The position numbers were made by a program, and so were the translations under genes. A stretch of DNA of 64,000 nt from positions 28,003,276 to 28,067,275 of the forward strand of contig NW_027467782.1 in NCBI RefSeq assembly GCF_004210375.1, written 5' to 3'. Source of the stretch: Tachypleus tridentatus (lineage: Eukaryota; Arthropoda; Merostomata; Xiphosura; Limulidae). Shown in pieces: positions 566-63,619 of this stretch (position 1 is the first letter of the stretch; each line of letters starts with the position of its first letter). The notes beneath the pieces are model-generated. The model was not told the origin of the DNA and did no database searches. It was given only the letters and a program-made list of their open reading frames with translations.

Positions 566-684
566 TGTGGAATTGCAATCTCTTGGATCCCTTCTTAACC
601 AGGTGATGACTGCTTTACTGCCCCTTCTTCAGTTTCACCCACAAGGAGTTGCTGCTATATTCCACTTTTAGTTGTTGAAAACAG
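566..684 (+). pseudogene. ATR: ATR remnant, exon e1 (HEAT region)
   Basis: This block lies between an AG acceptor and a GTATGT donor. It reads VELQSLGSLLNQVMTALLP and continues to a GVAAIFHF motif, matching the ATR segment that in human reads LGSLLSHVIVALLPL and then AAIFHYLIIENR. Just after IFHF the frame meets TAG because the T run at about 666-669 is one base short for the family reading, which would go on to VVENR. The exon then ends in phase 2 and fits e2. The single missing base could be a real frameshift or a homopolymer consensus error. Confidence 0.8.
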
Positions 685-799
685 GTATGTATGAAGTTCA
701 TATTTATTTATGTTATTCTTTTACAACTTTAGATTATTGGTTAATATGTTTGACTTTTTCATATGCCTGTCCACCATTTGTTACTAGAAATAAAAAATC

Positions 800-990
800 A
801 TGCTTTACACTTTGAGGCTGTGCATGCATTGTAAGCATGACAACCAAATCATACTGAGTAGTCAGACAAGAGTTAGCAGTGGATTTTGATAACTAGTTGT
901 TTTTCCTCAAAATTGTCAGTTAAAAATTGTGGGTGTCTAGTGCAGATGGCCAATGAATAAGTTTCTGTGAATATCTTAAAACAAAAACAA
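800..990 (+). mobile_element. Degraded tRNA-derived SINE body
   Basis: Pieces such as AAGAGTTAGCAGTGG, GATAACTAG and TAGTGCAGATGGCC line up in order with the body of the SINE at 3530-3793 (AAGAGTTGGCGGTGG, GATGACTAG, TAGCACAGATAGCC), followed by an A-rich end. It is much older than that copy; the tRNA-like head is hardly recognisable. Confidence 0.6.
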
Positions 991-1439
991 AGCATCTGTG
1001 CTAGAGACACAAATCAAGATCAACATTTTTGTAGGTGCAATTAAAGCTTTCATAAATATATTCATGTTTTTTGTACTAAAACAATTTTAGTAATACACAT
1101 TATGAAAATATAATATTGATGATATATCTACTAGTGCACTTTACCTTTGAGGATTATATTCTGTTATATCTTTATAAGATAAATGTTTAATATTCTCTTC
1201 TTCTATGATAGAGCAATTCTGTACAAACATTTTTTTATATCTAATAAAAGAGCATTTAACTGATGGTTGGTATGAATTAATAACAGATCTGCACTTTAGA
1301 GCAATGTATGATTGCTTAAAAATTTAATGCTAGACATTATATTAAATTTTATAGTAAAGAGCAATTTCCTGTTGATCTGATGATTGTTCAGAATCATGGT
1401 GAGGTAAACAATTCTTGTCACATACTTAAAAGTAAAGAG

Positions 1440-1667
1440 CACTCTCACTCTCTATTAATGTTAGAGGACCTTTTACATCTTTCAGAGTCAAATACACTGC
1501 AAAGATCTGATTTACAGGTCTTGTTGCATCCTTTAGAACAAAGTTCCTCTTACATTTTCTGAGCCACAAACAATTTCATGAAGATGTAATAATATAAGCC
1601 CTACTGCATCTTTCAGAGCAAAAAACATTTTAATGAGGATATGATGCTATGTATCCCATTGCATCCT
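1440..1667. repeat. Degenerate ~50-58 bp tandem repeat, left part
   Basis: Irregular repeats of a unit containing ACAGGTCTTGTTGCATC, a TTTAGAAC word and TTTCATGA. The same unit continues at 4949-5550 on the other side of two TTAA elements. This suggests that the elements split one array. Confidence 0.55.
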
Positions 1668-1671
1668 TTTA

Positions 1672-3224
1672 CCCTATTCACTGAGGTATTTTTACAGTGC
1701 ATAACACGAGGGTTTAGTGTCATACATTAAAATGTTTATTAAATAACTTTGTGGTTATGTTATACCAATTAGAATAGCATAAAATATTAGCTAATAATCT
1801 ATATTTTAATAGCATATAAGTTTTAAGTTCTTAACTCTATAAGGTAATATTTGAAAAAATACAGAATTTTCCCTATCCTGTCATCATCCTTTAAAAAGTA
1901 TGAAATTGTACATAAACTATTCTCCATAAAATTGTCATTGCTCAGGTAAACCACTTTTATTATAGTCCTCAACGTTGTTTGGTTACAGAGTTATCAAATA
2001 TAAAATCAGACCCATTCTGCCACACCCACCCATCACATCTTTTCTTTCATAATTCATTAGTAGTTCACTCATACATTTAATTATATATTACCTATAACCA
2101 GCAGACACTCAAGGTTTTTCATCTATCAAATGTCGTGGTTGTATAACATTCTATTCTGAACAGTTAAATGTCAGTTTCTCTCAGAGTATGAACAATGTTC
2201 CTCTAAGAAATTTAATGACTAGCTTGGATTAATTTGTAATGACCATTGTTCTAGTCAGAAAGCCAGAAAAATTTTGAGGGTAATGGAATTTGTATACTTT
2301 TTGCATGTTATTAGTTTATATTGTTTGAGTAGTATTTAATTAAATACAACTCATTAATTGCAATACAATGAATAAATAGTATACAAAAATTAGGGTTAAC
2401 TCTCTTTAACAACCAAAGAAAAAAAAAATATTTGTGATGTATTTTATTTCTTGTTTTTCATGGTTATTTTTTATGTATAATAAAATAAAGATGCTTCTTG
2501 AGGCTCACATGTAAGCTGCTTTTACTAGCTTTAGTAGCTCGTTGGTAATGTAATTCAATAGCATAATGGAGCTGCACACGGAGTTATTTACAACTTACAA
2601 GCATCCAGAGAGTAGTAAGTCATGTCTCAAAATCAATAAAACAATTAAATTTAAATATAAATAAATGCATATTGTTACAAACTTAAAGCTAATTAGGATA
2701 AACAAATGGGTTGTTATATTACTATACAAAGTCATTATAGAAATTAAAGTAGGTAATTCAGATTTTATTTTATTTTTATGGTTGCACAGTTAATCGTAAT
2801 TACCAATCTCATTTTGAAGTGGGTTAGAGAAATAATATACATATATTATCAAATTTTGTGAAAAGAAACCATTTCAAATGTATTTAGGAAGTCTTAGGGA
2901 TTAAATAAAGGAATGTTGAGACTTTGAGATAAGGAAAAGTATTTTTAATTTAGATGTGAAAATTACTTGACACATGGACTTTAAAAAAATAAAAAATACT
3001 CAATATACTTATGGATAAATATTTATTTTATTTTATTAGAAATACTTCTAAAAATATGATATATTTGTATGTTAAAGACTTACAATATAAAATTAAACAC
3101 TGCCATATTTTGTGAAGATATACACACTATATTGAAAGTTAAAAGTATTAAATCTAAAAATATTTTAAACAAGTACAAAGAGGTCACATGGTTGGTCATA
3201 TAAATCGACCCTGTGTTGAGAGAG
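1672..3224 (+). mobile_element. TTAA-flanked piggyBac-like non-autonomous element (copy 1)
   Basis: This is about 1.55 kb, alignable over its length with copy 2 (3229-4944). It starts CCCTATTCACTGAGGT after TTTA and ends GTTGAGAGAG before TTAG, decayed versions of the CCCTCTCATC / GATGAGAGGG ends. Shared internal landmarks are TTTTAAGTTCTTAA, GGTTACAGAGTTATC and TATTTCTTG. No open frame of note. The CCC start and TTAA-like targets suggest the piggyBac superfamily, but no transposase supports it. Confidence 0.6.
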
Positions 3225-3228
3225 TTAG

Positions 3229-4944
3229 CTATTTCTCTCCTGGTGTCCTTTACTGCACATGATACAAAGTTTTAGTGTTTTACATTCAAACTTTTACCAA
3301 ACTGCTTTTTGTTTATGATACAACAATTATTATAACATAAGAACTTGACCAATAATTCATATTTTAATAGTATGTAAGTTTTAAGTTCTTAATTCTACAA
3401 GGTAATATTAAAGACATCCTGAATTTTCCTAAGTATTCTTCCTTCTCTCTCTGTTTTACCCACCACCCTTGAAAAGTACAAAATTAAGCTTAAAGTACTT
3501 ACTATAAAATTGTTGTTTCTCTCACTAACGGCTCGGCATGGCCAAGCGCAGCATGTATGCACTGTTTGGTGCGAATGGGATGCTAACCCATGACCCTCAG
3601 ATTACATGCTCGCCCTTTCAGCCGTGGGGTGTTATAATGTGACAGTCAATCCCACTATTCGTTGGTAAAAGAGTAGCCCAAGAGTTGGCGGTGGGTGGGG
3701 ATGACTAGCTGCCTTCCCTCTAGTCTTACACTGCTAAATTAGGGATGGCTAGCACAGATAGCCCTCAGTAGCTTTACGAAATTCTAAAACAAATCTCTCA
3801 CTAACTGTGATTGTTGTTACTTTCAATTTTATTTGGTTACAGAGCTATCAAATAGAAAATCAGATCCTCCCTTGCCATCTGTCACATCCTCCTTTCAGAA
3901 TTTGTTACTAATTCTCTTTACATTTAATTACATATTATTTGTAGATAGTAGAAAGTCGCTTTTCTTTTGTCAATTGATGTGTTAAATTATGTTTTGATTA
4001 GGTTGGCATGATTTTCACTTATAATACAACTTTGGTTCCCACAGGAATCACAATGACTAGCTTGGATAAAATTGTAAAGTCTTTTGTCACATAGTTAATC
4101 TGTGATCTTCAGTATATTATTTAAATAAATAATAATGGTTTAGTGCATTACTACCATTAGTATAAAAACAGGCTTAAGTTTCACTGACAATCAACAGCAA
4201 GAAACAAGAAGTTTTGGTAAATACTTTATTTCTTGATTTTCATGTTTGTTTGTTATTTATTATTATAAAAAAAACTAAAATTTAAAGTAGGGATCTTTTA
4301 GGTTAGTAAAGACTAAATTAGGTAAAATAAATAATATGATAAAAGTGTTTCACAAGGCACCCAAATGAACTGCATGTGCTCCAAGTGATTTAAACCTTAT
4401 AATGGCACAGATAGTAGCTAGGAAAGGTTCAAAGTGCAAGAAAACAATATTTGATTATAAATGTATGTGCACTATTATGAGCTTAAAACTACATCAGATA
4501 AACAAAAGCAGTTTCATGTTACAATTCTAAGAATAAAAGAGGGTAATTTAGTTTTTTTAATGGTGGTTAGAGATTAATCAAACTGACTGATCTGGTTTTA
4601 AGATAGGGTAGAGAAAATGAAAGGTGAAATATGAAGTTTTCTGGGAAAAACATTTGAAATGTATTTAAGTGGTTTTATAAATTGCACAAAGGAATACTGA
4701 AACTTTTTTGGACGAGAAAAAATATTTTTAATCTTTACACACTGCATCCTCAAAACAAATACATAATATATTTACAGACAAACCTTTATTGTAGTTTGTT
4801 AAAAATACTTCAAAAAAATATGATTTTGTTGTGTGTGAAAGACTTGTAATGTTAACTGAAAGACTACCAAGTTTCGTTAAGACTTGAAATGAGTGCAAAG
4901 AGGTCCTGTGTTTGGTCATTTTAACTGAATTCATGATGAGAGGG
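3229..4944 (+). mobile_element. TTAA-flanked piggyBac-like non-autonomous element (copy 2), interrupted by a SINE
   Basis: Head-to-tail neighbour of copy 1, about 1.44 kb without the inserted SINE. It ends GATGAGAGGG followed by an exact TTAA at 4945-4948, the inverted complement of the CCCTCTCATC start of copy 3 at 13254. No coding capacity is seen. Confidence 0.62.
3530..3793 (+). mobile_element. Young tRNA-derived SINE with an inverted internal segment
   Basis: A 264-bp SINE flanked by a perfect 12-bp target duplication TCTCTCACTAAC (3518-3529 and 3794-3805), sitting inside copy 2 of the TTAA element. It begins GGCTCGGCATGGCCAAGCG. The body runs through CTCGCCCTTTCAGCCGTGG to GATAGCCCTCAGTAGC and an A-rich end. 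Positions 3549-3605, which should hold the B box of the Pol III promoter, are reversed: the box-like GGGTTAGCATCCC is on the minus strand. Compare the older SINE at 45677, where the same part reads in the normal direction. Confidence 0.88.
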
Positions 4945-4948
4945 TTAA

Positions 4949-5550
4949 ATCAAATCATAACATTACAAGTCCCATTACAACTTTCTGAGCCAAGGAAAGT
5001 TCCATGAAGATATAATAATGCAGATCCTGCTGCTTCTTTCAAGGGCAATGACCCTTTCATGACTATCTGATATTACAGGTCTTGTTACATCATTTTAGAA
5101 CCAAAAATAATTTCATGACTATTTGACATTATAGGTCTTGTTACATTATTTAGAACCAAGAACACTTTCATGACTATTACAGGTCTTTTTGCATCGTTTA
5201 GAACCAAAAACATTTTTATGACTACCTAATATTACAGGTCTTGTAACATTTAGAGCTGAGAAAACTTTCATGGTGATGCAATGTTACAGGTCTACCAAAG
5301 GTGTTCAAAATCAAAATTATTTTCATAAGGATGTAACATTGTGTCCTTTTGAATGCACCACTTTCATAGTAATTTGATGTTGTAGGTTCTTTCATTTTTA
5401 AGAACACTCTTGATATGTTGTAACTGTAAAGGCCTATTTACATCCTTCCAAGTCCAGAACACTTTCTGGCTGATCCTTTTGCATTTATTGAAGTGAAGAA
5501 TATTTATGCTTTTATTTATACAGTGAAGAACAGATTCTACTAAAGTCGTA
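4949..5550. repeat. Degenerate ~50-58 bp tandem repeat, right part
   Basis: Five or more diverged units, each with TACAGGTCTTGTTACATC, a TTTAGAACCAA word and TTTCATGACTAT. It starts directly after the TTAA that closes copy 2. The short frames across it have no codon or family signal. Confidence 0.7.
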
Positions 5551-6661
5551 TTCAATGAATAATATTTGTAAAAATTATTAATTTAAAAGAGTGGAATAGA
5601 GATCATCAAAATAGTACAGGTGTTCTAAAATCGATAAGCTGTAAACATGGAGTTAAAATAGGTAAATATAGCTTTAGAAAATAATGTGGACACTATTTCT
5701 AGTCTTCTTTATTACTTTTTGTTGGCATTTCTAGTTGTAGGTCTGAAAACATAACCTTTGTAATTTGATTCCACCTATTTCTGTAGATTTTTGTTGATCC
5801 CCATTCCTTTGTTTTTACATTAACAATTTTACTAATCTTATTTTTTAAGTTTTTATTTCCATTTATGAAGAATAACTTGTCAGCCACATATGTCTACATG
5901 CATTCGGTTGAATGTTACATATTTTCCACCAGTTTATTGCTGCATAGGCTTTTGTTTTTCCCATCTGATTAAGCCAGGTAGTTTTGTGCCTGAGGTTTTG
6001 TATAAACTCACATTTAACAAGTGTTGAGTACAAAGACAGGTGCTTGTAACAACATTGCTTCTATTATGTATTTATAACTGTGTAAATCAACTTCTAGTGA
6101 AGTATAATAAACTTTAAATACATCATGGACATTCATGGCATTTCATATAGTAAACCTGTCTAGTTTTTGTTCAAAATACCTGCCCAGTTTTGCTATATGC
6201 TTGTGAAAGAATAATATGAACAAATTTTTAACAGTCATTAAATCACTTAATTAATTTATGTTTGGGTGATCTTAGCTATTCAAAATGAAGATTTTGAATG
6301 TTGTTTGAAGAATAAGTTTGATTTTTAAAGTGGTTTTATATCAGAATTTTAAGTAAATTCCTTTGCAATCCCTGTTATGAACACTATTGTAGATCTTGAC
6401 TCAAATATCTAACCCTCAAGTGTCATCTTAGAAAAGAAAAAGGAGCCTATTAGTTATATTGAAATTCAGTTTTTTATTGACACAAATGATTACAGTATTA
6501 AGTGTTATTTCCATAATAGTAAATGTTGATAAAAACTGCTTTTGTAGTGATTAATTTGATTACATTTTATTTGCACAAAAACAGTTAATTTCTGAAGTAT
6601 AACAAAAAATATTTTCCTTTTGTATATTGAAATACATTTTACTGTTTTACAATCCATACAG
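5551..6661. other. Unassigned intron
   Basis: AT-rich sequence up to e2. Short minus-strand frames near 5700-5890 show no recognisable family. I see nothing else. Confidence 0.4.
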
Positions 6662-6766
6662 GATGAATCTGAATGAGTACTTCCATGACTTATACTTCAT
6701 TCCAGAATTGGCTGAATTGACTGAAGTTAACACTGTCTTAAAGGAGTACATAGATAGACCCTCCAA
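6662..6766 (+). pseudogene. ATR: ATR remnant, exon e2 (HEAT region)
   Basis: The exon follows a T-rich tract and CATACAG and ends at a GTAAAT donor. It is 105 nt and enters and leaves in phase 2. After the split Arg codon shared with e1 it reads MNLNEYFHDLYFIPELAEL and then TEVNTVLKEYIDRP, aligning with the human segment around FLHEIYFLPDHPELKKIKAVLQEY. No stop or shift is seen in this exon. It is separated from e1 by a 6-kb intron packed with repeats. Confidence 0.82.
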
Positions 6767-7373
6767 GTAAATATATATTTTTATAAATTTAATTTGTTTT
6801 ATACCTCAGGTTACTGAGGTGTTTATATGGTGTTCATTACTGGTGGGATTTGTATGTTACATGATCTTGAGTTAGTTTGATTTTACCTACTACAATACTC
6901 GGAGCAGTTAGTGGAATTAATTATAGTGTTGACAACTTGTGGGAACCCATCAATAATTCTTGGATTAAGTTATTGTGTAATGTGCTATTAACTTTGCAGT
7001 TAAAATAGCAGAAAATAAAGTACTTTAATAACAAAAGAGGTTTTAACATTTTCTTATTTTCAGACAGACACGCATGCATATGTATGTATATCTGTTTGTA
7101 CATTAGATTTAAGTTAAAGTTGTTCAAGAACTTGTATTGGTAAATATAAACATGGTAAATAATTTTCTGATGAGTTCATAGTTAAAAATTCAATGCATGG
7201 AATATTTTTGTAGAGTAGAGCTTAGGAACAGTTTATGGTAAGATTAGAAAGCTTAGGAAAACCAATTAATTTCCATAAGTTAAAAACTTGCATTACTAAA
7301 TCTTTCAATAAATAAATATATAATACTTCAGTATGAAACATTATCTTATGTTTAGCTATTCTTTCTGTTATAG

Positions 7374-7487
7374 GCAAGCAGATTTTCATTCATTACTAAG
7401 CCATTCACTGAAAGGTGTCAGTCATGAAAACCTGGAAGTATGCTTCCATGCACTGCGAAAGTGAAACAGCTTCTCTGCTCACATCAA
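7374..7487 (+). pseudogene. ATR: ATR remnant, exon e3 (HEAT region)
   Basis: Acceptor TATAG and donor GTAAGT bound 114 nt. The reading is QADFHSLLSHSLKGVSHEN then LEVCFHALRK, matching the ATR repeat around LQLSMKAIQHENVDVRIHALTSLK. After ALRK the frame meets TGA at about 7461. One more A in the AAA run at 7458-7460 would restore VKQLLCSHQ, the family reading, and would give the phase-0 exit required by e4. This is therefore a one-base deletion or a homopolymer error. Confidence 0.82.
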
Positions 7488-7797
7488 GTAAGTTTTCTCA
7501 ACATTTAAAACGATTAAGTTGAGATAGTTAAGATTTATAACTTTATTCACTTGTTTGTGTACCAATTATATAGTAAACTTTTGTCTTTCTAAATTGAATT
7601 AGCAATTTGGTAAGCACTATGATAAAAGCAATGCATTATAACTTGAAAAATATTTAAAACACATTTCAGTCCTGAATGTTCTTTTCACAATACATTATAT
7701 GATGTTGAATAATTATTAACGAAAATCATAATAGGAACATTGTCATCTTTTATAGATATTGCAATGATAATGTTATGAAACACACAAAATGTTATAG

Positions 7798-8166
7798 TCT
7801 TGACTACATATTCACTCCTCTAATACTCACAGGAGGTGTATTTTAGGTTACAGTATTCACTCCTCTAATACACACAGGAGGTGTAGTTTAGGTTACAGTA
7901 TTCACTTCTTTAATACACACAGGAGGTGTAGTTTAGGCTACAGTATTCACTCCTTTAATACACAGGAGGTGTAGTTTAGGTTACAGTATTCACTCCTTTA
8001 ATACACACAGGAGGTGTAGTTTAGGTTACAGTATTCACCCTTTAATACACACAGGAGGTTATCATTTAGGATACATATTCACTCCTTTAATACTTACAGG
8101 AGGTTATCGTTTAGGTACATATTCACTCTAATAATCATAGGATGTTATAGTTCATGCTACAGTATC
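7798..8166. repeat. 45-bp minisatellite, about 8 units
   Basis: Tandem units built around TATTCACTCC, AATACACACAGGAGGTG and TTTAGGTTACAG, lying in the intron after e3. The first and last units are the most diverged and the middle ones nearly identical. Confidence 0.9.
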
Positions 8167-8219
8167 TAATCCTTTAATAGATATATATATATCTTTGGAT
8201 TTGTCAACTATCATCTGCC

Positions 8220-10260
8220 ATGAAACTGTTCATTGAGTGAATTAACTTGCTTCTCCTCATCCTACCCTTATTCTTCCTGAACATGTCAAACCTTTTCAGG
8301 TTGATGAGGATTTTGACAGCCTTTTTCTTATATGATTTAGCTTGGTCTTCCTTCACCCCTGCCTTCCAGTGTCACAACAGTATGTCTGTGGACCTACACT
8401 CATAGAAACCATTTTGTGATACCTGTGGTTATCAGAGCACAGATGGAACACTGTGTAGCTTTCTGCTTAACTCCAAACACACAAATCCTTTGTCCCTGTT
8501 GCAGAATCAGCTAGACCTAATATGGCTTTTTTCAACATTATTTTTTGGGCATGTTCTATTTTATCCATTTACCTGATTTCATGTTCTCTATCCTTCTTTG
8601 TTACGTGATACCTCCTTGGTCTACTATCAGGCTGAATGTTCATTTATAAATTCTGAACAATTAGAATAAGCGTGGAGGCAGATCATGTTTATCCCACAAT
8701 TTGTTTTCTATTCTTCATATCCTATTGACTCTCCTGCAGTGCTTGTCTACCATCCACCTCCTTTCTCAGGTAATCCAAATTGATCCTGAGGTTTGTTTTT
8801 TTTTCAAGAGATTGCCTCTGCCTTGATTACTTAAGAATTTTCTGTGGGTTTGTGGATGGCCAAGGTAGATATTACTAATGCTTACCTGCATATCTTGGTA
8901 TCTCTTCATTTGAAGTATTATCTTTGGATTATTCATGACAGAGTAGTTTATAAATTTCACACTCTGCCCTTCAAGTTAGCTTTGGCCCCATATGTCTATT
9001 ATTGGGTGGTCAAACCATTCACCCAACATTTACAAAAAAAGTTTATCCAATAGTGTGGTCTTTTGATCTTCTTGCTTACCATTGGATATGCCATCAGTGG
9101 GATACTCCTCACCTGAATGCATCTGCATATCCATCAGTACCAAATTACCTCTGTTTTGTTTTCTGTTTCCTCATCCTATTGCCATTTTTGTGAAGATTGG
9201 ACCAACAAAACTTGTATGTTTATCCTTCCATGCATCTTTTTCATAGGTGATTTCAATCATCCTTACCACTATGTGTCAAGTTCTTATGATTGCTCCTTCT
9301 TAGCTGACACAGTCATAGTTTCTGTAGCTGTTCCAGCTTCAGTTTACCCTCCATTATCTCTTCCTTTCTTCTAAATCCCTTCTATGTTTACCTTGATCAC
9401 TGGTGTTTCATCCAGTCTTCCATAGGTTATATCTTTATGGCTGATTTATATTCAGTCCTTGGTTAGTTGATCTGGTTTATCCCAAAAGGTTTTTTTTTTT
9501 AGTTTGTTCCATTTTTCATTCCTCTAGGGATGTTTATCAGCATAAGTGAAATCTCTTCCACTATTGATCATTGTGTTAGAGGTTTTGCTATTTCTTATAT
9601 TACAAATTTCCTCACTTGGCTGTTTGATCAGGGGCCTTCTGTCTCCTTGATTGTGGGTTATTGGCTTCCTTATCCCTCACTTTTATTTATCCAGTACCAT
9701 AAATTTCTTACCTTTCCTGTGATTTCCTTCTTGTCAAATTCCTTTCAGATATGTCATCCACCATGGCATGCTATTCTTCTGGATTGGGATGTCAATATGT
9801 TGTTTTATTGATTAAATCTATTTTACTTCTCCTTTTAGCATGCTGACATTATTTGTCAGATTTATTTACTGTTGAAATTTCACATACTCTTTATCATTAC
9901 ACATGTATTCTTTTTTTCTTGAATCTGTTTTCCTTCCCAAAACTTCTGCATTTCAGAAGATTAATTTTTCTTTTCACCAATTTCACTTCTTTCTATTTCC
10001 CATCTTTATATTATCAGTCAGGTTTGGATAATCTGTTTTGTCCTTTCCATGCTCTTTATTGTTATGTTGCCCACACAACTTCCTTCCCTAGTACCTTTTC
10101 ATTCCTTGGCAGACATCTTGTGTTTATGACCTTCCTGACCAGTTGGGTTCAGCTTTAGTTCAGTTGGTATTTTTTTATCATCTTCTTCCAGTAATTTCTT
10201 CTAGGTGTCTTCTCATCAGATTAGGCACCTTACCTTTCCCTGGTATTTCATCTCGGTCAT
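8220..10260 (+). mobile_element. DIRS-type (tyrosine recombinase) retrotransposon fossil 1
   Basis: A plus-strand fossil. Around 8844-9050 lies a reverse-transcriptase block (MAKVDITNAYLHI, then LPFKLALAPYVY) of the DIRS style DLKDAYFHI...LPFGLSLAPRVF. Around 9530-9830 lies a stretch like the start of a DIRS tyrosine recombinase. No terminal repeats are recognised. It is broken, with many breaks, and looks old. A relative lies at 47640. Confidence 0.65.
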
Positions 10261-10689
10261 ACCTTGGAGGAAGTAAAAGCATGAGAGGTAAGACTTCATA
10301 ATTTCAGGCCTTATCTGTGCTAAAAGCATCATCATCAACTTGACTGCTTCACTTTCTCCACCTGGCAGGATTGTCTAAAATTCAAGCAACAACCTATGAT
10401 TTTTATTTTAAAGAAATTTGGTACTAGAACAGAGGCATGACTGATAATGTTCCCAGTCTGAGATGATACAGGGTTTCTTAGCACATGGGCTGTGACCTAA
10501 AATTTGGTAGTAAGAAGGTGGGAAATAAAAGTGTGTCAGACAGAGTTTAAAGATAGATAATAATTTATGTATTTAAAAAAAATTCTTTTGATTTAGTGAG
10601 TGAGTTAGATGTTTTTGTACCAAAAGTACTTGCTGGGTTATGAAGGGCTATCAATGTTTATTAACTTTCCAAAGGATGACTGCCTTTCA
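10261..10689. other. Unassigned intron between transposon remnants
   Basis: No similarity recognised on either strand. It may belong to the LINE or to the DIRS fossil beside it. Confidence 0.3.
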
Positions 10690-11630
10690 GTACACTCCCT
10701 GAGAAATTGAAAGTTACTGAGTTGTTTATCTTTGTTTCTGTCTATCAGTTATTCAAGATGAGGAATACTGCTTAAGTCTTCATTAGTACAAACTGAAGAA
10801 AAAGCAGAATTTAATAACTTAGCCATTTCATAATAATCAGATACAAGTCTTCCTTTGTCATCCCTCAAGGGTCCGATCATCATCCTTACATTTTGTCTGT
10901 CTCTAATGTATTTACTGTCAATTTTATGTTTTAAGCAAAAATTATTTTACATTCTTTTGATGTCCTGATTACCTATTTGACCTTCTTGATCTTCTATAAT
11001 AACAATCAGTTTAAATTCCTTATATTTGTGATGCTTTTCTTTAATTTTATCTGTTTTATCCTTTGTCAGCTAACATGGTTTTTTTTACTTGCATCTGCTC
11101 TTTTCTTTCTGTATGAAACATATTTATTTTGAATATTGTAAAATTTTCTAAAGAAATTTTTATATTTGCTCAATGTCCCCAAATGGCTCAACTGCCCAAT
11201 ACACAACAAGTAATTCTTGTTGCATTCCTTAAAAGTTGCTTTTGAAAGTAGGAGTCAAAATATCATTATTACCAATTTCCAAATGCAGAAAAACACCAAA
11301 GTTAATATTGCAAAATCACTTTACCTGGATGTTCCCAAATTTTTATCTTCTCAACCACTTCTGTATTTGAAGTTAACAGTAAATCTAAAATAGCATTATT
11401 TCAAGTAAGTTTCTTGACCATTTGGTGAAGAAATTATATTGAACATTTTCCAGGATCCTTTCTCCCTCATGGTTTGATTCTAGTACTTCTCAATGTATGA
11501 AGTTAAGATCACTTATAATTATGACTTCATTAACAGCTGGAATCTTAATCTTGCCATAAAGGTTTTCTTTAATTTCTTCAGTTTCATCTGGTGGACTGTA
11601 ATAGATTCCTACTAAGAGATTTTCCCTTTA
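10690..11630 (-). mobile_element. LINE fragment (CR1/Jockey-like), antisense
   Basis: On the minus strand near 11620-11520 the reading YYSPPDETEEIKENLYGKI followed by VIIISDLNF is the end part of an APE-type LINE endonuclease (family pattern GxxYRPPN...VIMGDFN). Near 10890-10770, GPLRDDKGRLVSDYYEMA then LLNSAFSSVCTNED is the stretch before the reverse transcriptase. The reverse transcriptase itself is not present. Several stops and shifts occur. Its 5' side abuts the Gypsy-type fossil. Confidence 0.65.
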
Positions 11631-13090: not shown

Positions 13091-13099
13091 TAATTGTAA

Positions 13100-13245
13100 C
13101 TTGCTGGTGATAAATTTCAACAATAGACAAACAGCACAAAGTCCGCTTATTTTAAAATAATATATTAAAACAAGTCAAACATGTACCTGCCAGTATTCTA
13201 GAATGTTTCATACATACTGTTATATGTTATCATGCAATAAATACT
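13100..13245. repeat. Dispersed repeat shared with 31840-31930
   Basis: The words AAATTTCAACAATA, ACAAACAGCA and ATATTAAAACAA occur in the same order here and near 31850. The position beside the Gypsy-type fossil would suit a terminal-repeat piece, but this is a guess. Confidence 0.4.
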
Positions 13246-13253
13246 CTAATTAA

Positions 13254-14477: not shown

Positions 14478-14546
14478 AGTGAACTTCTGCAGTATCTATT
14501 GGAGCAAGAATCAGCAGATCCACTTATATCACAGTTGATGTCTGTA
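14478..14546 (+). pseudogene. ATR: ATR remnant, exon e4 (HEAT region)
   Basis: A 69-nt, phase 0-0 exon follows TTTGTTTCAG and precedes GTAAGT. It encodes SELLQYLLEQESADPLISQ and then LMSV, aligning with human KLIKYATDSETVEPIISQLVTV. It is intact by itself. It lies 7 kb downstream of e3, past the DIRS, LINE and Gypsy-type debris. Confidence 0.83.
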
Positions 14547-21278: not shown

Positions 21279-21290
21279 ACTAATTGATTT

Positions 21291-22090: not shown

Positions 22091-22094
22091 TTGC

Positions 22095-24531: not shown

Positions 24532-24569
24532 AATTGCTGAATTTCAAATTCTGTTATCATGTTTGATAG

Positions 24570-52928: not shown

Positions 52929-53551
52929 TTTGAAGTAATTGTTTTAATGTCTAATTACATGGAGAATGGTACATATCATTGTGGATATCTTTGAAGTAAT
53001 TGTTTTAATGTCTAATTACATGGAGAATGGTACATATCATTGTGGATATCTTTGAAGTAATTGTTTTAATGTCTAATTACATGGAGAATGGTACATATCA
53101 TTGTGGATATCTTTGAAGTAATTGTTTTAATGTCTAATTACATGGAGAATGGTACATATCATTGTGGATATCTTTGAAGTAATTGTTTTAATGTCTAATT
53201 ACATGGAGAATGGTACATATCATTGTGGATATCTTTGAAGTAATTGTTTTAATGTCTAATTACATGGAGAATGGTACATATCATTGTGGATATCTTTGAA
53301 GTAATTGTTTTAATGTCTAATTACATGGAGAATGGTACATATCATTGTGGATATCTTTGAAGTAATTGTTTTAATGTCTAATTACATGGAGAATGGTACA
53401 TATCATTGTGGATATCTTTGAAGTAATTGTTTTAATGTCTAATTACAAGGAGAAAGGCACATATCATTGTGGATATCTTGAAGTAATTGTTTTCATGTGT
53501 AGTTACATGATGAATAATATTTACCATTGTGGATTTCTTCAGGTAGTTGTT
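52929..53551. repeat. 61-bp minisatellite array B, about 10 units
   Basis: Same unit as array A, but about eight consecutive units are identical to the consensus. The last two or three variant units are the same as the end of array A. The array starts abruptly after GATATGCAATTT. Confidence 0.95.
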
Positions 53552-53989
53552 CCCCTCATTCTGGATTCCTGTGATTGGTGAGGGGACCTCCCAGGGGAGG
53601 TTCTGTTCTTTTAGTTTACCTCTTTTGGGATCTAAAGATCCACCAACATTTGTTGTGCATGGTGACCCATGAAGAGGAGGAGAAGATCCTGATGGTTGAG
53701 GGGTCCAACCCTAACATACCACTGTGGCCTTGAATTCCTGTAGATGGGCAGCCTTGGGGTGGCTCCCCTTGGGTCAGTTGGCTGGTTTACTTGGCCTAGG
53801 GTTAACCAAGTACCAGTGTTGGATGTTCTCAGCAGGTGTTGTGGACATTGTACCTGATGCTGGTGTTTGGGTATAGTGCTCATGAAACCCTGGTGTTGCT
53901 GCAGTGTTCTTGTTTGGCATTGTAATGCATCCACTCATAGGGCTTTATGGTGGGTGGGGACAGTGGACACCGAAAAATTCATTTTTATT

Positions 53990-55228
53990 ATGGACCATCC
54001 AAATAAAAAAGTTAACCAAAATAGTGAAAAACAGTTTATGAGTAAACAATCACATCTTGAAGATTCTGAGCAGCAATCTTTAACATTTGTAACTTCTGTA
54101 CCTTATTTTATTATACTACATTTTCTTTCAGACAAACCTTTAGGGCAAATGTCTCCCTTTTTCATTCAGAAGGGACCAGAAGGTCTCACTGGCTCTCCAA
54201 AGTTGGTCAGAAGGATTCGCTCTTGTGACATATTGGTAGAAATATCCACATCTCGAGCACAGTGAATTCCTCTTACATTCCAAGGCAATATACCTATTGA
54301 GGTTATGCCTCATTCAACTTTGAATTCGTAACAAGAAGTTATTGTTGATAGGGATTTGAAGAACATCCTGAGTCAGAGATTCCCACTGGTTTCTCCCACC
54401 ACAAGGAGTTTCTTCAGTAAGGTGTATCTCCACTCCCAAAGATGGAATTTTGATGCCGATCAATGTCCTCATTTTAACATTTACATCACAGCATCCACCT
54501 GCTACCAACAAGGCAGGTTATTTTAACTGCAAGGTACGGCCATACATTCCAAACCCTCTCGGATAGTTCCAGTGTCAGCCATTTGATCACTCGGAGACAT
54601 CATGTCTTGGTTCCTTTACATGTGCTCGTTGCAGTGGCAAGGATTATGGTGTCTATGAGTATGAAACAGACCCTTGTTGCATCACTTGCAATGGCTCTCA
54701 CCCATCTTACTTTTATTCTTGCCCTAAATGGTTGGAAGGAATAAAAGGTACAGTGTTTAAAGACGATTCAAAACATTACTTGCCCTGAGGCTTGAAAATT
54801 GCTATCTACCACTTTATGTTGGACTTATGCTGATGCACTTCATTCCACTACTACAGTGGGAGTACAGACAGATCTCTCTGTACCTCCAAAAGAATCATTC
54901 TCAAAACAAACAGAAAGTCTTCTGACATCCATGGTTAAAAAAGTTAATGAATCAATGTCAACACCCATCTTTGTCTCTAACATTAATTTCAGCAAACCCC
55001 AATATCTGCTTCCTTTGGTTTTGGTTACACTTTCTTCTCCTTTCCCAAGGTGCAAAATGATCATTTGTTTGCACCCTAAGTCACTGGAATCCTCTTCTAA
55101 CAACAAAGACTTGCCCAATCAACCCAGGGTAGGATCCATTGAGGTTGGTAAACCTCCCTCGAATAAAGACAATAAAGAAATAAAACATGGTCTGCACCCA
55201 ATTTGCCTACACGTAAATAAAAGTAGCC
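53990..55228 (+). pseudogene. LINE ORF1, copy B
   Basis: It starts at ATG in MDHPNKKVNQ, open to 54265, then broken, then open again from 54799 to 55266. The zinc-knuckle segment lies at about 54620-54730. Defects are the same as in copy A apart from small run-length differences. Confidence 0.77.
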
Positions 55229-58200
55229 ACCTTGATACAATGGAACTGTTGAAGTTTACATTCTAATCTGGGTGACATCAAAACACTTATTTCTTTCTAC
55301 CATCCTGTATGTCTTTCCTTACAGGAAATCTTTCTGAAACTTGCTGATACAATCACCTTTCAGCAGTTTTCTTTGTACAGAAATGACAGGCTGTGTGATG
55401 GACAAGTGCATGGAGGGGTAGCACTGTTGGTTGATCAGCATGTGCTTACCCTGTCTTTGTTACTCAACACACCCTTGGAGGCTGTAGCCATTTGTGTTTC
55501 TTTGTGTCGTACCATCACTGTTTGTTCTCTCTACCTGTTGACTAGAGAGACCTATGATCAATCAGACCTTGATGCTCTCATTAAACAGTTGCCATCTCCA
55601 TTTTTAATGCTGGGGGGCTTTAATGGAAATCGTCCCCTCTGAGGAAGTGCTGATATTGATGGGAGGGTCACTCCATAGAGTGTATGCTCTCAGATCACAA
55701 CTTTTCTCTCTTCAATAGTGGTTCTTATACTTATTTTCATGCATCTAGTCAGTTCTTTACTGCTTTTGATCTCTCCATTTACTCCCCTTCACTATTCTCC
55801 CACTTTTCGTGGAGGGTTGACAATAACCCATGCAGCAGTGATAATTTTTCTACAATTTTGAGAGAGACTGGCTGTGGTCAATGCCACCCAACCCATGTGC
55901 ACCAATGGAAAAAGGATCAAGCAAACTTGCTCTCTTTCACTGTTCTTACAGAACTTGATCCTGCCATCATCTGTATGCCATCAATAGACGACTGTGTGAC
56001 AGCAATAACTGACTGTATTGTACAGAAAGCTGCTCAAAGTATTCCTAAAGCCTTGACATGTTTTCCACAATATCATCATCTGTGGTGGAATCTTGCCTGC
56101 CACATGGCACAGAAGACTCAAAAATGGACGTGGGATACTTTTCATAGGTATCCCACATTCTCGAATCGCATCGCTTTCCAACAGGCCCGTGCACATGCTT
56201 GGTGGGTAATATGTCAAAGCCAGAAGGACTCTTGGATTAAGTTCACAATCAACATATCACCAGTTGGGCAGAGTAATCACTTCTTTCCTTTGAGCTGATT
56301 GTCTCTGTGACTATAATCGTCCCCTTACACTGGCTCTTCATCAGTCTGTCAGTACATTCGGTTGGACCTGATGATGTGCTCTATGAAATGCTGTGCTATC
56401 TCTCTCCTGCTTCTCTTGCTGTTTTTCTGATTGTTTTCAACCAGATGTGGCAGGAGAATGTTTTCCTGATGCCTGGCACTGAGCTATATTCCTATCTTTC
56501 TCTAAGCCTGGGAAGGATCCGAAGATTCCTTCAAACTACCATCCAATTGCTTTGATGAAATGTCTCTGTAACACCTTAGAGAGGATAGTTAAAGCTCGTC
56601 TTGTTTGGTTCCTTGAAGACAATAACCTCCTCTCGCCCACCCAGTGTGTGTTCTAACGACAGTGCTCCACCATGGACCACTTGATTCGACCTGAAACATT
56701 AATCAGAGAAGCTTTTCTCAAATGACAAAATCTTGTATCAATATTCTTTGATATTGAGAAGGCTTGTGACACAACATGGAGGTATGGCATTTCGCTAGAC
56801 CTCCATATATATGGGTTACTTGGCCATTTACCCATGTTTATTAAAAAATTTTTAATGGACAGGTGATTCCAAGTTCATGTGGGTTCAACACATTCCAGTT
56901 TTTATCTACAGGAACTTGGAGTTCTTCAGGGCTGTGTTTTGAGTGACACATTTTTCAGTATAAAGATTAATGCCATCACTGAACTACTCCCTCTTACTGT
57001 TGCATACGGTCTCTATGTCAATGACTTTCACATTTCATGTCAATCATCAAACATGCAGTATATTGAGCGACAGCTACAAACTGCCCTCAATTGTTTTCTG
57101 AAGTGAATCACTGCAAACAGTTTTAATTCTCTCTCTCTAAAACTGTTTGTATGCACTTTGCCACCAATGGGGTATTCACCCTGATCCTGAACTCAATATT
57201 GGTGAAGTTGTGCTAACTGTGGTCCCTGAAACAAAGTTCTTTGGGCTTATCTTTGACTGTAAGCTGAGCTTCATACCACACATCAAACAGCTACAGGTCA
57301 AATGTACAAGAGCACTGAACATCCTCCATGTCCACTCTTTCACATCTTGGGAAGTGGATCAATGTTCTTTGCTAAAGATATATCAGGCTATTACTTGTTC
57401 AAAACTGGAGTATGGATCACTGGTCTATGGCTCTGCCAGCACCTTGGCCTTCAAGATCATCATCAGGGACTTCAGCTCTGCACCAGGGCTTTCAGCACTT
57501 CCCCTGTTCATAGCTTATACGTAGAATCTCATGAACCTTCTTTGCACCTCTGCCGTTTGCAACTGTCTTTACTGTATTCTTCAAAACTTCAGTCCTTACC
57601 ATAACATTCCACCTGGGATTATGTTTTCCTTCCTCAGTGGGCCATGCTTTTGTAAAACAGACAGTCAGCCATTGCTCCTTTTGGCCTTTGTATCCAAGTA
57701 CAGTTGGATGAATTGGGTCTATCCTTGGATAACATTTGCTGTATCCACTGGTCAGCTCATCCTACCATGGCTTATTACAGTCCCAAGATGTAACCTTTCT
57801 TTAAGTCATCTGAGAAAAGCAGACACTCCTGATTGGAAATACTGTATGTTATTTGCAGAACATCTTTCAAACCACCCTTCCATTCCAGATGGTTCAAAAT
57901 CAGGTGACTCTGTGGGCTCAGCCATGGTTTGGTGGTTGTGCACAGAATCCTCTCTACAGTTTCTGTGTTCACTGCTGAACTGTATGTCATTTCTCTTGTC
58001 CTGTATCACACAGAAGCTAAGCAGTACTCAAATTGTACTATTTATACTGACTCGCTTAGTTCTCTACTGGTCCTTGAATTGTTTCATCTTAGTTCTTACT
58101 GATATTCAAAATCGACTGGCCCATTTCTCTTTAACATCTACTTCTGTCCAGTGTTTCTAGATACTGGGCCACATTGGTATTTGCAGGAACGAGCTTGGTG

Positions 58201-58680
58201 ACACTGCAGATAAATCTGTCTGCTCTGGCTCTATCACTGCTGTTTCTGTTCCATACGTGGACTATGGTCCTGTATTCAAGGCTCAGCTTCATGCCAGTTA
58301 GCAGTCGACTTGGTGAGCAACGTGAAAACAAGCTTTTCTAAATAAAACGTGCTATTGGACTTTGGCTATCTTGCTTTCTTAAGGACCAAAATGGAAAGAG
58401 GAAAATGTCCTAACTAGACTACACATTGGTCACAGTTTTTTAATTCATCGTTTTCTTTTATCTGGGACTGATGAACCAATGTATTGTCTGTTACATTAAG
58501 CCACATTTTACTGTTTCGGTGTCATTACGACTTAATTATGGCACCATTTTAAACATGTTTTGTCCCAAGGTTTATTTGTTAGACATTGTTATTGGCAATG
58601 GTGACATTGTCCACCTTTGAAATGTTTTTAGTTGTTTAAAGTCTATTAATCTTTTAATGCTATTTAAGTTTGTTTTTTTT
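55229..58680 (+). pseudogene. LINE ORF2, copy B
   Basis: Endonuclease start EIFLKLADTITF and YRNDRLCDGQVHGGVALLVD (55326-55450) are in one frame with PSPFLMLGGFNGN to about 55640. Reverse transcriptase lies at about 56360-57130 with YVND in place of YVDD (Asn at 57020-57022). RNase H lies at about 57860-58240. Several stops and shifts are shared with copy A. Confidence 0.82.
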
Positions 58681-59114
58681 TTTTTACTTTATATATTTGA
58701 CATTTTTTGATGTGATTCACTTTTAAGAATCAAAGTACATCTAGTTCGATCTAAAATTAGAAAATGGCCATAACATCCAATAACTTGAAACCAGGAATGG
58801 AAAGACCAACTTCAGGTGACTGATGCTACTTTTTAACTACCTGTTGGTCATTCTGGCAAGTTATGATAATTATAATTATGCTGTAAAAAGTCCTTCACAA
58901 CTTGTATTACTGTAGTTTTTTTTTTCTTACTGCTGTAGACTAGATGTAAAAGTTGGATTTAATGCTATTTGTGTTTTTAATTCAAAATGTAACTTTGTTT
59001 TGTTTTATTTTAATTTCCTTTAATGAATTTTAATAATTTTACTTTACTTTTAACTTTTAACCAGATGTTTGGTGCACATAGCCTGGTTGCTAGAACACCA
59101 AATCAACCAGCCAT

Positions 59115-59180
59115 CCATGTAATTGTTTCCATGTCTAGTTGCATGGAAATGTTACATTATATTTGGGGTATCATCATATC
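59115..59180 (+). repeat. Stranded 61-bp unit on the far side of LINE copy B
   Basis: Same as 42075-42140, with one G fewer in the G run. Confidence 0.7.
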
Positions 59181-59444
59181 ATCAGATATTATTCTTTTAT
59201 CTTAGTAACAGTGAATTAGAAGTATGTTTTTTTATTATGCTGCTTTCAGCTGTGTTTTCTTTTCATGCTAAAAAATGTTTAAATGGTTTAGAAAGATATT
59301 TAACATGATTCTCTATCTCAGTTGTGTTTTTCTTTTGTTAGTTTACTTTTTTTATATATATATATACTAGTTTTTCTGTATTCGTCAGACACTGAAATGT
59401 AGTTTGTTAAGATTTTAGGGAGTATGTGTTTGTTTTTCTTCCAG

Positions 59445-59583
59445 ACTACACATGTTGACAGATATGGAGAAAGCAGTCTAAGTTTTACAGGTCTCTGCCC
59501 TTCATTTCAAGGAAGCTACTCCTCAGTCAGTAGATTGAACTCCACTCTTAGAAGAGTGGAGAGGAAGAAGAAAATTGGTTCAA
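59445..59583 (+). pseudogene. ATR: ATR remnant, exon e11, second copy, two in-frame stops
   Basis: This is the duplicate of the exon at 42405. Here it is one continuous frame of 46 codons after the split base: LHMLTDMEKAV, TAA at 59479-59481, VLQVSALHFKEATPQSVD, TGA at 59536-59538, TPLLEEWRGRRKLVQ. The Trp at 59557-59559 is kept, and RRKLVQ joins e12 in phase 0. Both stops are also present in the first copy, so they predate the duplication or are fixed in both haplotypes. Confidence 0.77.
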
Positions 59584-60373
59584 GTATGTGTTTCAGGTTT
59601 TACTTTTATTGCAAATAGAATATATAAAACTGCAGTCTCAAAAGCTAGGAATGATTTTTTTATCTAATGATATTGATAATTTAACTTATAGTTTGTATAC
59701 ATTACTGATTATTTCTTTAAAGCTTTAAAGATACCAAATGAGATGTGAAGAGAAAAATAGAAAGCACTTATCATTCTTGTTTTAAAAAAAAGTGTCTCAT
59801 TATATATCGGGAGCAACTACTCTAATGATAAGAACTTCAACATTTATATCTTTGATATTGTACATTTTTTAGGTACGAGAACACATTTCTGAGTTTAAAA
59901 ACATAAATTGTTTAAAGCAGATTATACAATATAAATAATAAAGAATCATTTAATGATCATATACACAAACGTTTTAAAATAATTAGTATACTAATAATCA
60001 AAGTCTACATTAAAACAAAGATTAAAATTTTATTAATCTAACCTTGAACAGGCACTTATAGTTCTGTTTGTCTCTCTAGAAATAATTAAAAGTAATATAG
60101 AAATGAAATTTACTGAAATACCATGACCCAAACTTAAAGATATACCATTTTAATTATAACAACTGTTTCATTGGTTTTCATATAATATTTGTCTATTTTT
60201 ACTTAATTCTTTATTTTAAAGGCTAAAATTTAGATGAATTATATTTTATGATTATAAATGTTTGTTAATTGTATTTAACTTCCCTTTAAACAGTACCTAG
60301 TAGAGGAGATCTTGAATTAGAAATAATATTTTGTATTCATGAGTGTTTTTTTTTTTACTTCTTTGTTTTACAG
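59584..60373. other. Unassigned intron, second copy
   Basis: Duplicate of 42545-43336; nothing recognised. The stretch 59181-59444 before e11 is likewise empty. Confidence 0.45.
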
Positions 60374-60516
60374 TCCTCACTTCATTATCAGGAACCTCTT
60401 CTTAATCTGTACCGGGTTCTCCTTACAATAGCCAAGAACCACATTCCTGAGCAGACCAAAAAGATTGATTACGAAATCGTAACTTGCTGGTTACAAAGTG
60501 CAAAACTTGCCAGAAA
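60374..60516 (+). pseudogene. ATR: ATR remnant, exon e12, second copy, open
   Basis: The duplicate of the exon at 43337 is 143 nt and open throughout: SSLHYQEPLLNLYRVLLTIA, then KNHIPEQTKKIDYEIVTC and WLQSAKLAR, leaving in phase 2. The GGG that is GG in the first copy is present, so this exon is undamaged. Confidence 0.88.
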
Positions 60517-62715
60517 GTAGGTTTTATTACACTGCAAATAAATTCTTGTAATCACCTCATCTGTACTGTTCCTTTAACTTTTCAGTCAATTATTAATCTG
60601 ATCTATTCTTTCATTAATATCATATAGTAACATACATTTCTCTGAAATGTGTATGGAGTATTTCAGAGGCATCAGACCTGGAGGTGTTGTAACATCCCCA
60701 CTTTTACATATTTTACATGCATAGCAACTGTAAATTATTATATCAATTTTCTGGTGAGGACATGCCCTAAATCTTTACAGACTTAGCTGACTTTGACAGC
60801 AGGGGGAAACACTTTTAGCAGCTTCTTATACTTTAAATTCCTCGTTGTACATTTTGCGTGTCTAGTCAAGCACTCCACCTATTTCTCTCCTTCCTGCACC
60901 ACTAATACTGAAGATATCACATTGAAAAGTTCCTAAACCTGTCAGTGCATGCATGTAGAAGTTATTACTCATTTCTAATTCTTTGTAAGACATTATTGAG
61001 CTTTTATGTACATTCTCACAGAGAGAATATTATATAATGTGTTTATGGGGTATCATTTTCTTCTAACACTTTGTTCACATTAACAGAATCATTAATGTTT
61101 ATTAAAATATTTTAATTTATAATCACAGTAAAGTTATATATTAGTCTCACAATTTATACAAGTAGCACACCTTGGTTGTAAGCTTCTGATGAAAATTTAA
61201 ACTAAATGCAGTTTTAAAAAAAACAAATTCGTAATCCAGTTTACTGAGTTAAGTTGGGGGGAGTATTTCTCATCAAAATCTGACTTTTTGATTCTGTTGT
61301 TAGTGTCACATAGTAAAATGTTAAAGAAATAATTTATGATCCATGATGGTGAGAAAAACCTGCTACATAGAGTTTTTCTCTGCCCATACCAGCCGTTTTT
61401 ACATATATATTTTAATTATGCATTGTCACTTTAGCCTAAAATTATGTCAAGTTAAAAGACATGTATTATTTGTAACCCAGTTATAAGTTTTGAAAGAAAA
61501 CTTCATATTTAAAATGATTCTATCTTCATAGATAAGGTCCATAAGTTTTATACAGGAATGATCAAACAAAAGAGGACATTACAAACCAAATCATACTGTT
61601 TCAAAAATAATTTTGTTTACCATCTGGCATTGCTTTTATTTCTCTTTTTTGTCAACAGTATGATAATGGAGATTTAAATGTGTGCCATTACTCAGAATAT
61701 TGTAAGAACCATTGAACTTTGTCTAGAATAGATTATTTATGAAGTAGCTTAATTTTTAGGGATTAGCTTGATACCAGAGTAGCAAAATGTCCAAAATCGT
61801 GAGGGTACAGACCTCAAACTTTACAGAAATATGGAGGCCTACTGATGGATGTAATGAAACTAAAGCTTGTTTCAGTTGATCTGATAGATATTTGATTATG
61901 TTCTTCTATCTCACATTTTCTGTACATAAGTGAATAAATACAACATACATGTTTCAGGGGACTGTAAGTCTGGCATAAGAGGTGATGAGGATAACATTTT
62001 GTGTGTGTGGATTGATATGGTTCTTGTGCAGAACTGGGTTTGAATATGAAAATGATATTGTATTGATAATTTGACAATTACCCCACTAGCAGTTTTCTGA
62101 ACTTTAAGGTGGAATTATTCTGTGGCATGGTGGGCTTTTATAATAGATTACTTTTACCAGTTACTGTGTATCTCTTATATTTCTGAATTCTAGTGTTTTT
62201 TAGTCTTGATGTTTCTACAGCATATTGGAATCCACAGAAGATGCTGTATATGATCTCTCTCTGTTAGGTGATTTGATGCAAATTAATTACAGTTGTTTTG
62301 GCTTCTAAATGCTTTTCTGACTTAATATTGTGTACATATCCTGTATATGTGTTTTAGAGAAATCTCTGACATATAGTTTTCTTCTTAGAGTAATGCTAAA
62401 ATAATAGGACTTGAACCCCATATAACAAAAGGTAATACAAATAAATGTATACATCTGGTTACTACTGATATCATACATAATCTACCTAGGATATCAATCA
62501 ATCTAAACTTGTATACCCCTATTGAAAATATTCAAACACAGAGAATGAGTCAATGATTTTGTTGGAGTGCTGCAGCTCATGTTGCCACATAGTTGTGCTC
62601 TGTCTAACGATTGTACATCTTGACAATATTCTGACAGCACAGTCTCCATTACAGAAGGCTCTTTCATGCAACTGTCATGTAGAAATTACATCTGAAACTT
62701 GATAATTAGGCTTTT
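60517..62715. other. Unassigned intron with MITE end, second copy
   Basis: Duplicate of 43479-45676, with the MITE end at 61357-61411. Confidence 0.5.
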
Positions 62716-62935
62716 CAGCTCGTAATCTACAGATTACAGGATTGAACCTCATTACTGAACATGTTTGCCCTCTCAGCTGTGGGAACATTATATATTGTGA
62801 CAGTCTGTCCCACTATTCAGTCTGACAAAGGTTAGTGGTGGATGGTATTGGCTAATTGCTTTCTATATAATTCATCACTCAAAATTAGAGAAGGCTAGTG
62901 CAGATGGCTCTTGTGTAGCTTTGCATAAACATTCA
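62716..62935 (+). mobile_element. Old tRNA-derived SINE, second copy
   Basis: Duplicate of the SINE at 45677, nearly identical. Confidence 0.8.
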
Positions 62936-63519
62936 ACAACGAGTCTCAGGACACCATGCTTTCTATAATTGATTTAATTTATGGGGACATTAGTTTCTCA
63001 GTGCTTGTTTTGGAAGTTTGTTAGCACAGGAATCTGTAAGTGCTGTATCTAGGTTTGTTTTTTTTATGATAATAAATGCTCTTTGTTTTAACTCGTGTAT
63101 TTTTATAGCCACTTCAAGTTCTTGACATGCTTGAAGCTTTCATGTGTTCATCAACTAATCTTGTGCATATTAATAGCTTGTATTCAAGTTCACTGCTAAA
63201 GTCCAGAACTGGTACTAGATTTGAATCATTAGAATAAATATTATATTTGATAGTAATTCATCTGATAACTGTAGAATTAGTACCATACACTAAGTGAAGA
63301 ATTTATTTAAGAATGAGTTGTAATTAAATTATATCATTAGATTTAACTGTTATTAAAAACTAAGAAGTATCTGTGTAATAATTAATTGCATAATTATATT
63401 AATTATGTAATAATTAATTGCACTATTATATTGCATACATTATGATTAGAATCCATTAACTGTACAATGAATCATGTCCATTAATTTTCAGAATAGTATT
63501 TTCAACCTGTGTTTTTTAG

Positions 63520-63619
63520 AAGTGGTCATCAACAGAGGGCTTATAGTTGTCTGCTAGAAGCTTCAGTATTAAACATACCTGAGACATTTGTGGAAAAGTC
63601 TAAGTGGCACTGGAATAAA
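63520..63619 (+). pseudogene. ATR: ATR remnant, exon e13, second copy, open
   Basis: This duplicate of the exon at 46482 has the same coding sequence (SGHHQRAYSCLLEAS, then FVEKSKWHWNK) and the same splice sites. It is the last ATR exon before the right edge. The next family segment (KGDVHQALIVLQKG in human) must lie beyond the window if it survives. Confidence 0.88.

What the first reader, a model, noticed from the sequence alone, without database searches (positions are those of the whole stretch)
566..63619. A decaying, intron-bearing ATR gene
Thirteen ATR exons in correct order are present, but reading is broken by one-base shifts (e1, e3, e6, first e12) and by stops inside well-aligned codons (e8, e11). 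ATR is essential in animals studied, so a dead copy implies a second, working copy. Horseshoe crabs are known for whole-genome duplications, and this could be an ohnologue in the middle of being lost.
Basis: partly seen in the sequence, partly recalled or inferred. Interest (0 to 1): 0.72.

Follow-up and report, generated by a model that had tools for sequence, protein, structure and literature searches.

The report
Amplified dead fragments of ATR gene
This stretch of a horseshoe-crab genome looks like one of about twenty recent, broken copies of the middle of the ATR DNA-damage gene, most of them on one chromosome-sized scaffold, and not an ancient second ATR slowly being lost; part of its apparent damage looks like sequencing error.

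Summary
The window does hold 13 ATR exons in order, three of them twice, in a horseshoe crab. It is not an ohnologue in decay. Kinase- and FATC-bearing ATR was found only on scaffold C3. Where C3 letters were held, window introns align to it at 96-99%, far too close for a whole-genome duplicate. The window is one of about 20 copies of an internal ATR block (human residues about 994-2160, about 70 kb), mostly on the same 69.8-Mb scaffold, C19. No kinase or FATC match lies on C19, and 21 places share one exact 3' breakpoint. Some lesions are real: a 7-base deletion in e6, with the frame split in 14 of 21 e6 places; two nonsense changes in e8, while 19 of 21 other e8 places show no stop; stops and a 5-base deletion in e11. 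The one-base breaks in e1 and e3 look like consensus errors: window 1-16428 differs from C3 by 27 substitutions but 84 indels. It then jumps to amplicon sequence at a junction found nowhere else, so the window may be an assembly hybrid. Verdict: a recent segmental-duplication pseudogene family.

The parts
1..16428 (+). C3-type segment with ATR exons e1-e5; collinear with C3:67980978-67997484
   Evidence: blastn 99.25%; 27 mismatches, 84 indel events, 57 of them one-base deletions
566..684 (+). ATR exon e1 (human about 1208-1244); one base missing in a T run against C3
6662..6766 (+). ATR exon e2 (about 1245-1276), in frame
7374..7487 (+). ATR exon e3 (about 1280-1316); one base missing against C3
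14478..14546 (+). ATR exon e4 (about 1315-1339), in frame
15918..16006 (+). ATR exon e5 (about 1339-1368), identical to C3
16428..16429 (.). junction: C3-type DNA on the left, amplicon-type DNA on the right, short A-run overlap; the two halves are about 10.7 kb apart on C3
   Evidence: of 26 matches only the window carries both halves; letters
19709..19895 (+). ATR exon e6 (about 1614-1668) with 7-base deletion; frame split in 14 of 21 e6 places
20623..20728 (+). ATR exon e7 (about 1678-1713), in frame
24570..24720 (+). ATR exon e8 with two nonsense substitutions (TGA, TAA)
24986..25076 (+). ATR exon e9 (about 1763-1791), in frame
29254..29316 (+). ATR exon e10 (about 1797-1814), in frame
32867..36498 (+). 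61-bp satellite array (about 60 units) in an intron; the C3 sequence breaks into a 500-N gap beside the matching array
35881..46958 (+). amplicon-type segment, copy A of an internal duplication (e11-e13), about 2% from C3 in substitutions
42405..42544 (+). ATR exon e11, copy A: two stops and 5-base deletion against C3
43340..43478 (+). ATR exon e12, copy A (start approximate): one base missing that copy B has
46482..46581 (+). ATR exon e13, copy A, in frame
52927..64000 (+). copy B of the internal duplication, 98.9% to copy A
59445..59583 (+). ATR exon e11, copy B: TAA stop, 5-base deletion, one base fewer in a T run
60377..60516 (+). ATR exon e12, copy B (start approximate), in frame
63520..63619 (+). 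ATR exon e13, copy B, in frame

Best explanation
The window is one member of a recent, intron-bearing family of ATR fragments. An internal block of the ATR gene (about 70 kb, human residues about 994-2160, without either end of the gene) was copied from the C3 locus. It then multiplied to about 20 copies by segmental duplication in both orientations, mostly within the first 45 Mb of scaffold C19; a few pieces lie on C4, C8, C9, C10 and C14. The copies cannot make ATR kinase and appear to drift. Shown: multi-copy exons inside the block and single-copy exons outside it, shared 3' end, no kinase match on C19, real lesions. Inferred: the direction C3 to C19, duplication as the mechanism, that C3 is the working gene, and that the first 16.4 kb of this window is a poorly corrected near-duplicate of the C3 sequence, joined to a true amplicon copy either by the assembler or by a very recent rearrangement.
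For: Copy number: UME exon 21 matches (C19 17, C4 2, C9 1, C3 1); N2 exon 21, e12 34 and e14 26 places, partial ones counted, while the flanking exons N1 and E17 match C3 alone (tallied). Shared 3' breakpoint: 21 of 23 C19/C4 places start at exactly C3:67866267. Six C19 copies differ from C3 by 288 mismatches in 17,651 columns; seven are 98.1-99.5% identical to each other and share 15 fixed differences from C3 in 1,673 columns, with 29 columns variable among them: one founder. Kinase: 0 of 28 matches on C19 (of the C3 ATR exons this search reported only the one at 67839195, so it is in effect a one-exon test). FATC: 0 of 7 on C19. The C3 kinase piece matches ATR best, E=2e-119. Error signature in window 1-16428: odds ratio 32 for one-base deletions to mismatches against six other C19 copies; 401 bases upstream have 0 mismatches and 6 deletion events against C3 and the C3 state at 5 of 5 diagnostic sites.
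Against: C3 is not a continuous gene in this assembly: its two halves lie in opposite orientation about a 500-N gap and no e6-e9 match lies on C3. Many copies keep open exons: 19 of 22 e8 places and 21 of 21 e9 places show no stop, which recency explains but residual use could too. Exons e11-e13 differ from C3 more than introns do, but 8 of the 13 changes are in e11; in e12 and e13 4 of 5 changed codons are synonymous, which does not exclude constraint before the copy broke. The assembly shows signs of retained duplicate sequence, so the exact copy number is uncertain.
Confidence: 0.8

Rival explanations
1. One reading: an ohnologue from a horseshoe-crab whole-genome duplication that is now being lost.
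For: Horseshoe crab confirmed; introns retained; real stops and frame breaks.
Against: 96-99% identity through introns to C3; about 20 copies with one shared breakpoint; kinase, FATC, N1 and E17 exons not found on C19.
Confidence: 0.02
2. The window copy is wholly an assembly artefact: a duplicate contig of the C3 ATR locus with uncorrected errors, wrongly placed on C19.
For: Window 1-16428 is near-identical to C3 in substitutions and full of one-base deletions; the 16428/16429 junction is unique; the assembly shows equal-scoring homeobox pairs on one scaffold.
Against: In the aligned parts of copies A and B, both share 168 of 213 differing columns against C3; the e6 frame split is shared with 13 other places; six other C19 copies have many mismatches and few indels.
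Confidence: 0.12
3. The amplified block is kept because it does something: truncated ATR-like proteins that lack the kinase, or antisense or small RNAs that act on ATR.
For: High copy number; many exons still open.
Against: e6 frame split in 14 of 21 places; variable truncations and inversions; e11 changes all nonsynonymous or nonsense.
Confidence: 0.05

Closest known systems
Unprocessed pseudogene families spread by segmental duplication (duplicons; recalled from general knowledge, no call)
   Same: Intron-bearing internal gene block, many near-identical copies in both orientations, shared founder breakpoint, probable parent elsewhere
   Different: The parent is ATR and most copies sit on one scaffold of a horseshoe crab; the listings (10 of 55 papers listed; none) show no report of it by title or abstract start
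Ampliconic regions of sex chromosomes (abstract starts seen in the listing: PMC6772104, PMC7313670, PMC3308322)
   Same: Many near-identical copies on one chromosome; inverted pieces
   Different: The Y families there are multicopy genes expressed in testis; here the copies are fragments and nothing links C19 to sex
ATR kinase (PIKK family)
   Same: Exon order and sequence of human residues 1208-1970
   Different: No kinase or FATC match on C19; broken frames

Membership tests
ATR gene, functional | PI3K-like kinase domain and FATC in the same gene | tested here: not met
   0 of 28 kinase and 0 of 7 FATC matches on C19; present on C3
ATR gene, functional | unbroken reading frame through the exons | tested here: not met
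   e6 7-base deletion, e8 and e11 stops
Ohnologue from whole-genome duplication | divergence of the age of the duplication, introns no longer alike | tested here: not met
   96-99% identity through introns where C3 letters were held
Ohnologue from whole-genome duplication | paralogous synteny of neighbouring genes | not tested
Segmental-duplication (unprocessed) pseudogene | introns retained and alignable to parent | tested here: met
Segmental-duplication (unprocessed) pseudogene | shared breakpoints or shared derived sites among copies | tested here: met
   21 of 23 C19/C4 places start at one base; 15 fixed differences in seven copies
Segmental-duplication (unprocessed) pseudogene | no purifying selection on exons | tested here: inconclusive
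   13 of 388 exon columns against 285 of 15,309 others differ, but 8 of the 13 are in e11 and 4 of 5 changed codons in e12-e13 are synonymous
Sex-chromosome ampliconic region | sex-linked depth or inheritance | not testable with these tools
   no reads; PMC7210998 says information on sex chromosomes in horseshoe crabs is lacking (passage)

The most novel reading that the evidence does not exclude
A unit of about 70 kb that contains the middle of ATR, with a fixed 3' end, has spread to about 20 places over some 42 Mb of one horseshoe-crab chromosome and to a few others. It behaves like a mobile amplicon, and that part of C19 would be a candidate non-recombining or sex-limited region in a group with no known sex chromosome.
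Probability: 0.08. Interest if true: 0.65.

Novelty: new member of a known kind. Interest (0 to 1): 0.35.

Why it matters
It corrects a tempting story (an essential gene's ohnologue caught in decay). It warns that ATR annotation in this assembly is unsafe: the C3 gene is split and flipped at a gap, perhaps because its middle exists in about twenty near-identical copies. It also points to a recent, unexplained amplification concentrated on one scaffold.

Tried and rejected
Ohnologue: rejected on intron identity and copy number. B chromosome or gene-free scaffold: not supported, because C19 carries 15 of the 150 listed homeobox matches, all between 47.68 and 58.69 Mb, with what looks like a Hox cluster; the ATR places lie between 3.41 and 45.35 Mb. 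As a gene-density test this is weak: 150 of 606 candidates were scored. Processed pseudogene: rejected, introns are kept. Capture of a single exon by a transposon: rejected, the copies are far larger. 5' breakpoint: (C3:67960001-67970000) returned repeat copies and not even its own place, so its silence on C19 is not evidence; one search also omitted its own place, so its counts are lower bounds, but its positive matches stand. The 5' end is only bracketed between exons N1 (67957566) and N2 (67973972). Other kinase loci: 8 of 28 kinase matches and 7 of 7 FATC matches were compared with human ATR as letters. The 7-base deletion was read as letters only in the window and one intact copy; at the other 13 split e6 places it is inferred from the frame split. 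For the tally I dropped 5 of the 88 rows as second pieces of a place already counted; partial exons are included. One search scored 40 of 1394 candidates; its 21 near-full matches are 17 on C19 (window included), 2 on C4, 1 each on C8 and C10. An earlier count said that 23 other e8 rows have no stop and gives 12 C19 e1 copies; the recounts are 19 of 21 other e8 places, and 13 on C19 with the window. Paper searches served for background (listings only, except passages of three papers).
Full report
What is there. The window lies at C19:28003276-28067275 of a 2.17-Gb genome of 205 contigs. That genome carries 19 matches to the Coagulin family; the 14 control genomes, given only as well known, have none. 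That this family is a horseshoe-crab hallmark is recalled. I did not determine the species. Thirteen ATR exons run in order on the + strand from 566 to 63619 (human ATR from memory). Their peptides match solved human ATR chains at E=4e-56; the other 2 of 5 listed chains are TPR-like proteins. Exons e11-e13 occur twice because 52927-64000 repeats 35881-46958 at 98.9%.

The C3 locus. All 7 FATC loci of the genome were compared with human ATR: C3 matched best (59% and 79% in two exons), C1:46517483 matched at 39%, five gave nothing at E<=0.01. C3 holds human residues 844-1368 on the + strand (67957348-67997063) and 1891-2644 on the - strand (67886539-67822785), with kinase and FATC. The kinase piece scores 400 bits to ATR, 217 to yeast MEC1 and 177 or less to the other PIKKs listed. 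The change of strand coincides with a 500-N gap at 67895160-67895659, so a mis-oriented scaffold piece is the likely cause (inference). None of 107 e6-e9 matches lies on C3, so the middle of the gene may be hidden in that gap. That C3 is the working gene is inferred.

The copy family. The UME exon matches 21 places: 17 on C19, 2 on C4, 1 each on C9 and C3. Exons inside the block are multi-copy: N2 21, e12 34, e14 26 places (tally) and e7 29, e8 22, e9 21 places. The exons tested outside it, N1 and E17, match C3 only. In one search, 21 of 23 C19/C4 places begin at exactly C3:67866267: one founder end. The longest complete run of tested exons, C19:31464896-31533161, spans 68 kb. Copies lie in both orientations; two pieces of 20,277 bases each at 28.18 and 28.26 Mb are mirror images. 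Six C19 copies differ from C3 by 288 mismatches in 17,651 columns. Seven share 15 fixed differences from C3 and are 98.1-99.5% identical to each other. Heterozygosity in another horseshoe crab is 0.8% (PMC7210998, passage), so this divergence is recent.

Real lesions and doubtful ones. e6: a 7-base deletion against an intact C4 copy; 14 of 21 e6 places show the frame split, 5 are unbroken and 2 partial. e8: two nonsense substitutions; 19 of the 21 other e8 places have no stop, and two degraded ones have stops of their own. e11: CAA>TAA and a 5-base deletion in both window copies, TGG>TGA in copy A only, a further one-base loss in copy B only. By contrast e1 and e3 each lack one base against C3 in a stretch (window 1-16428) with 27 mismatches, 19 of them in one 2-kb bin, and 84 indel events, 57 of them one-base deletions, of which 42 lie in runs of four or more. 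Six other C19 copies show 19 one-base deletions to 288 mismatches (odds ratio 32, P=3e-31; related sequences, so the P value is only indicative). The 401 bases read upstream of the window have no mismatch to C3 but 6 deletion events, and carry the C3 state at 5 of 5 sites that mark the amplicon copies. The first e12 also lacks a single base that the second has. Sequencing error is therefore the better reading for e1, e3 and the first e12, though only reads can settle it.

A hybrid window. At 16428/16429 the sequence passes from C3-type to amplicon-type DNA. Of 26 matches to a 601-base probe over this point, only the window carries both halves; 2 carry the left half only and 23 the right half only. 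On C3 the two halves are about 10.7 kb apart, and no match to about residues 1369-1613 was found in the window. Either the assembler joined a poorly corrected C3 duplicate to a C19 copy, or a very recent rearrangement did so.

Selection. Against C3, exons e11-e13 of copy A differ at 13 of 388 columns (3.4%) and the rest of 37101-52900 at 285 of 15,309 (1.9%). Changed codons: e11 4 nonsynonymous and 2 nonsense; e12 and e13 4 synonymous and 1 nonsynonymous. The sample is small and does not by itself show absence of constraint.

Literature. PMC7815833 (abstract and passages) puts a WGD in the horseshoe-crab ancestor at about 135 million years. PMC7210998 (passages) says sex-chromosome information is lacking. 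Searches for ATR with horseshoe crab (7 papers), for pseudogene, segmental or ampliconic duplication with horseshoe crab (10 of 55 listed) and for ATR pseudogenes (none) listed no paper that, by title and abstract start, describes this family; only that library was searched.

Verdict. A recently amplified family of ATR fragments: ordinary in kind, unusual in copy number and in its concentration on one scaffold.

Noticed in passing
C19:52.13-55.04 Mb and C19:47.68/47.79 Mb; also C10:19.90/20.03 Mb, C14:22.00/22.11 Mb: Homeobox matches occur in pairs with equal scores on the same scaffold, including what looks like a Hox cluster, which suggests retained duplicate haplotypes or a recent duplication.
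   Followed up: no
C3:67895160-67895659: 500-N gap about which the ATR gene changes strand: a probable scaffold orientation error beside a 61-bp satellite.
   Followed up: partly
window 38503-41115 and 55253-58160: Long reading frames with the look of a non-LTR retroelement, one set in each copy of the internal duplication; the window-C3 alignments run across both.
   Followed up: no
C19:28176132-28196409 and 28258157-28278434: Two mirror-image pieces of the ATR block with the same length, 20,277 bases: a palindrome or an assembly fold-back.
   Followed up: no
window 7804-8179 and 25172-25543: Minisatellites of 45 and 31 bases between ATR exons.
   Followed up: no
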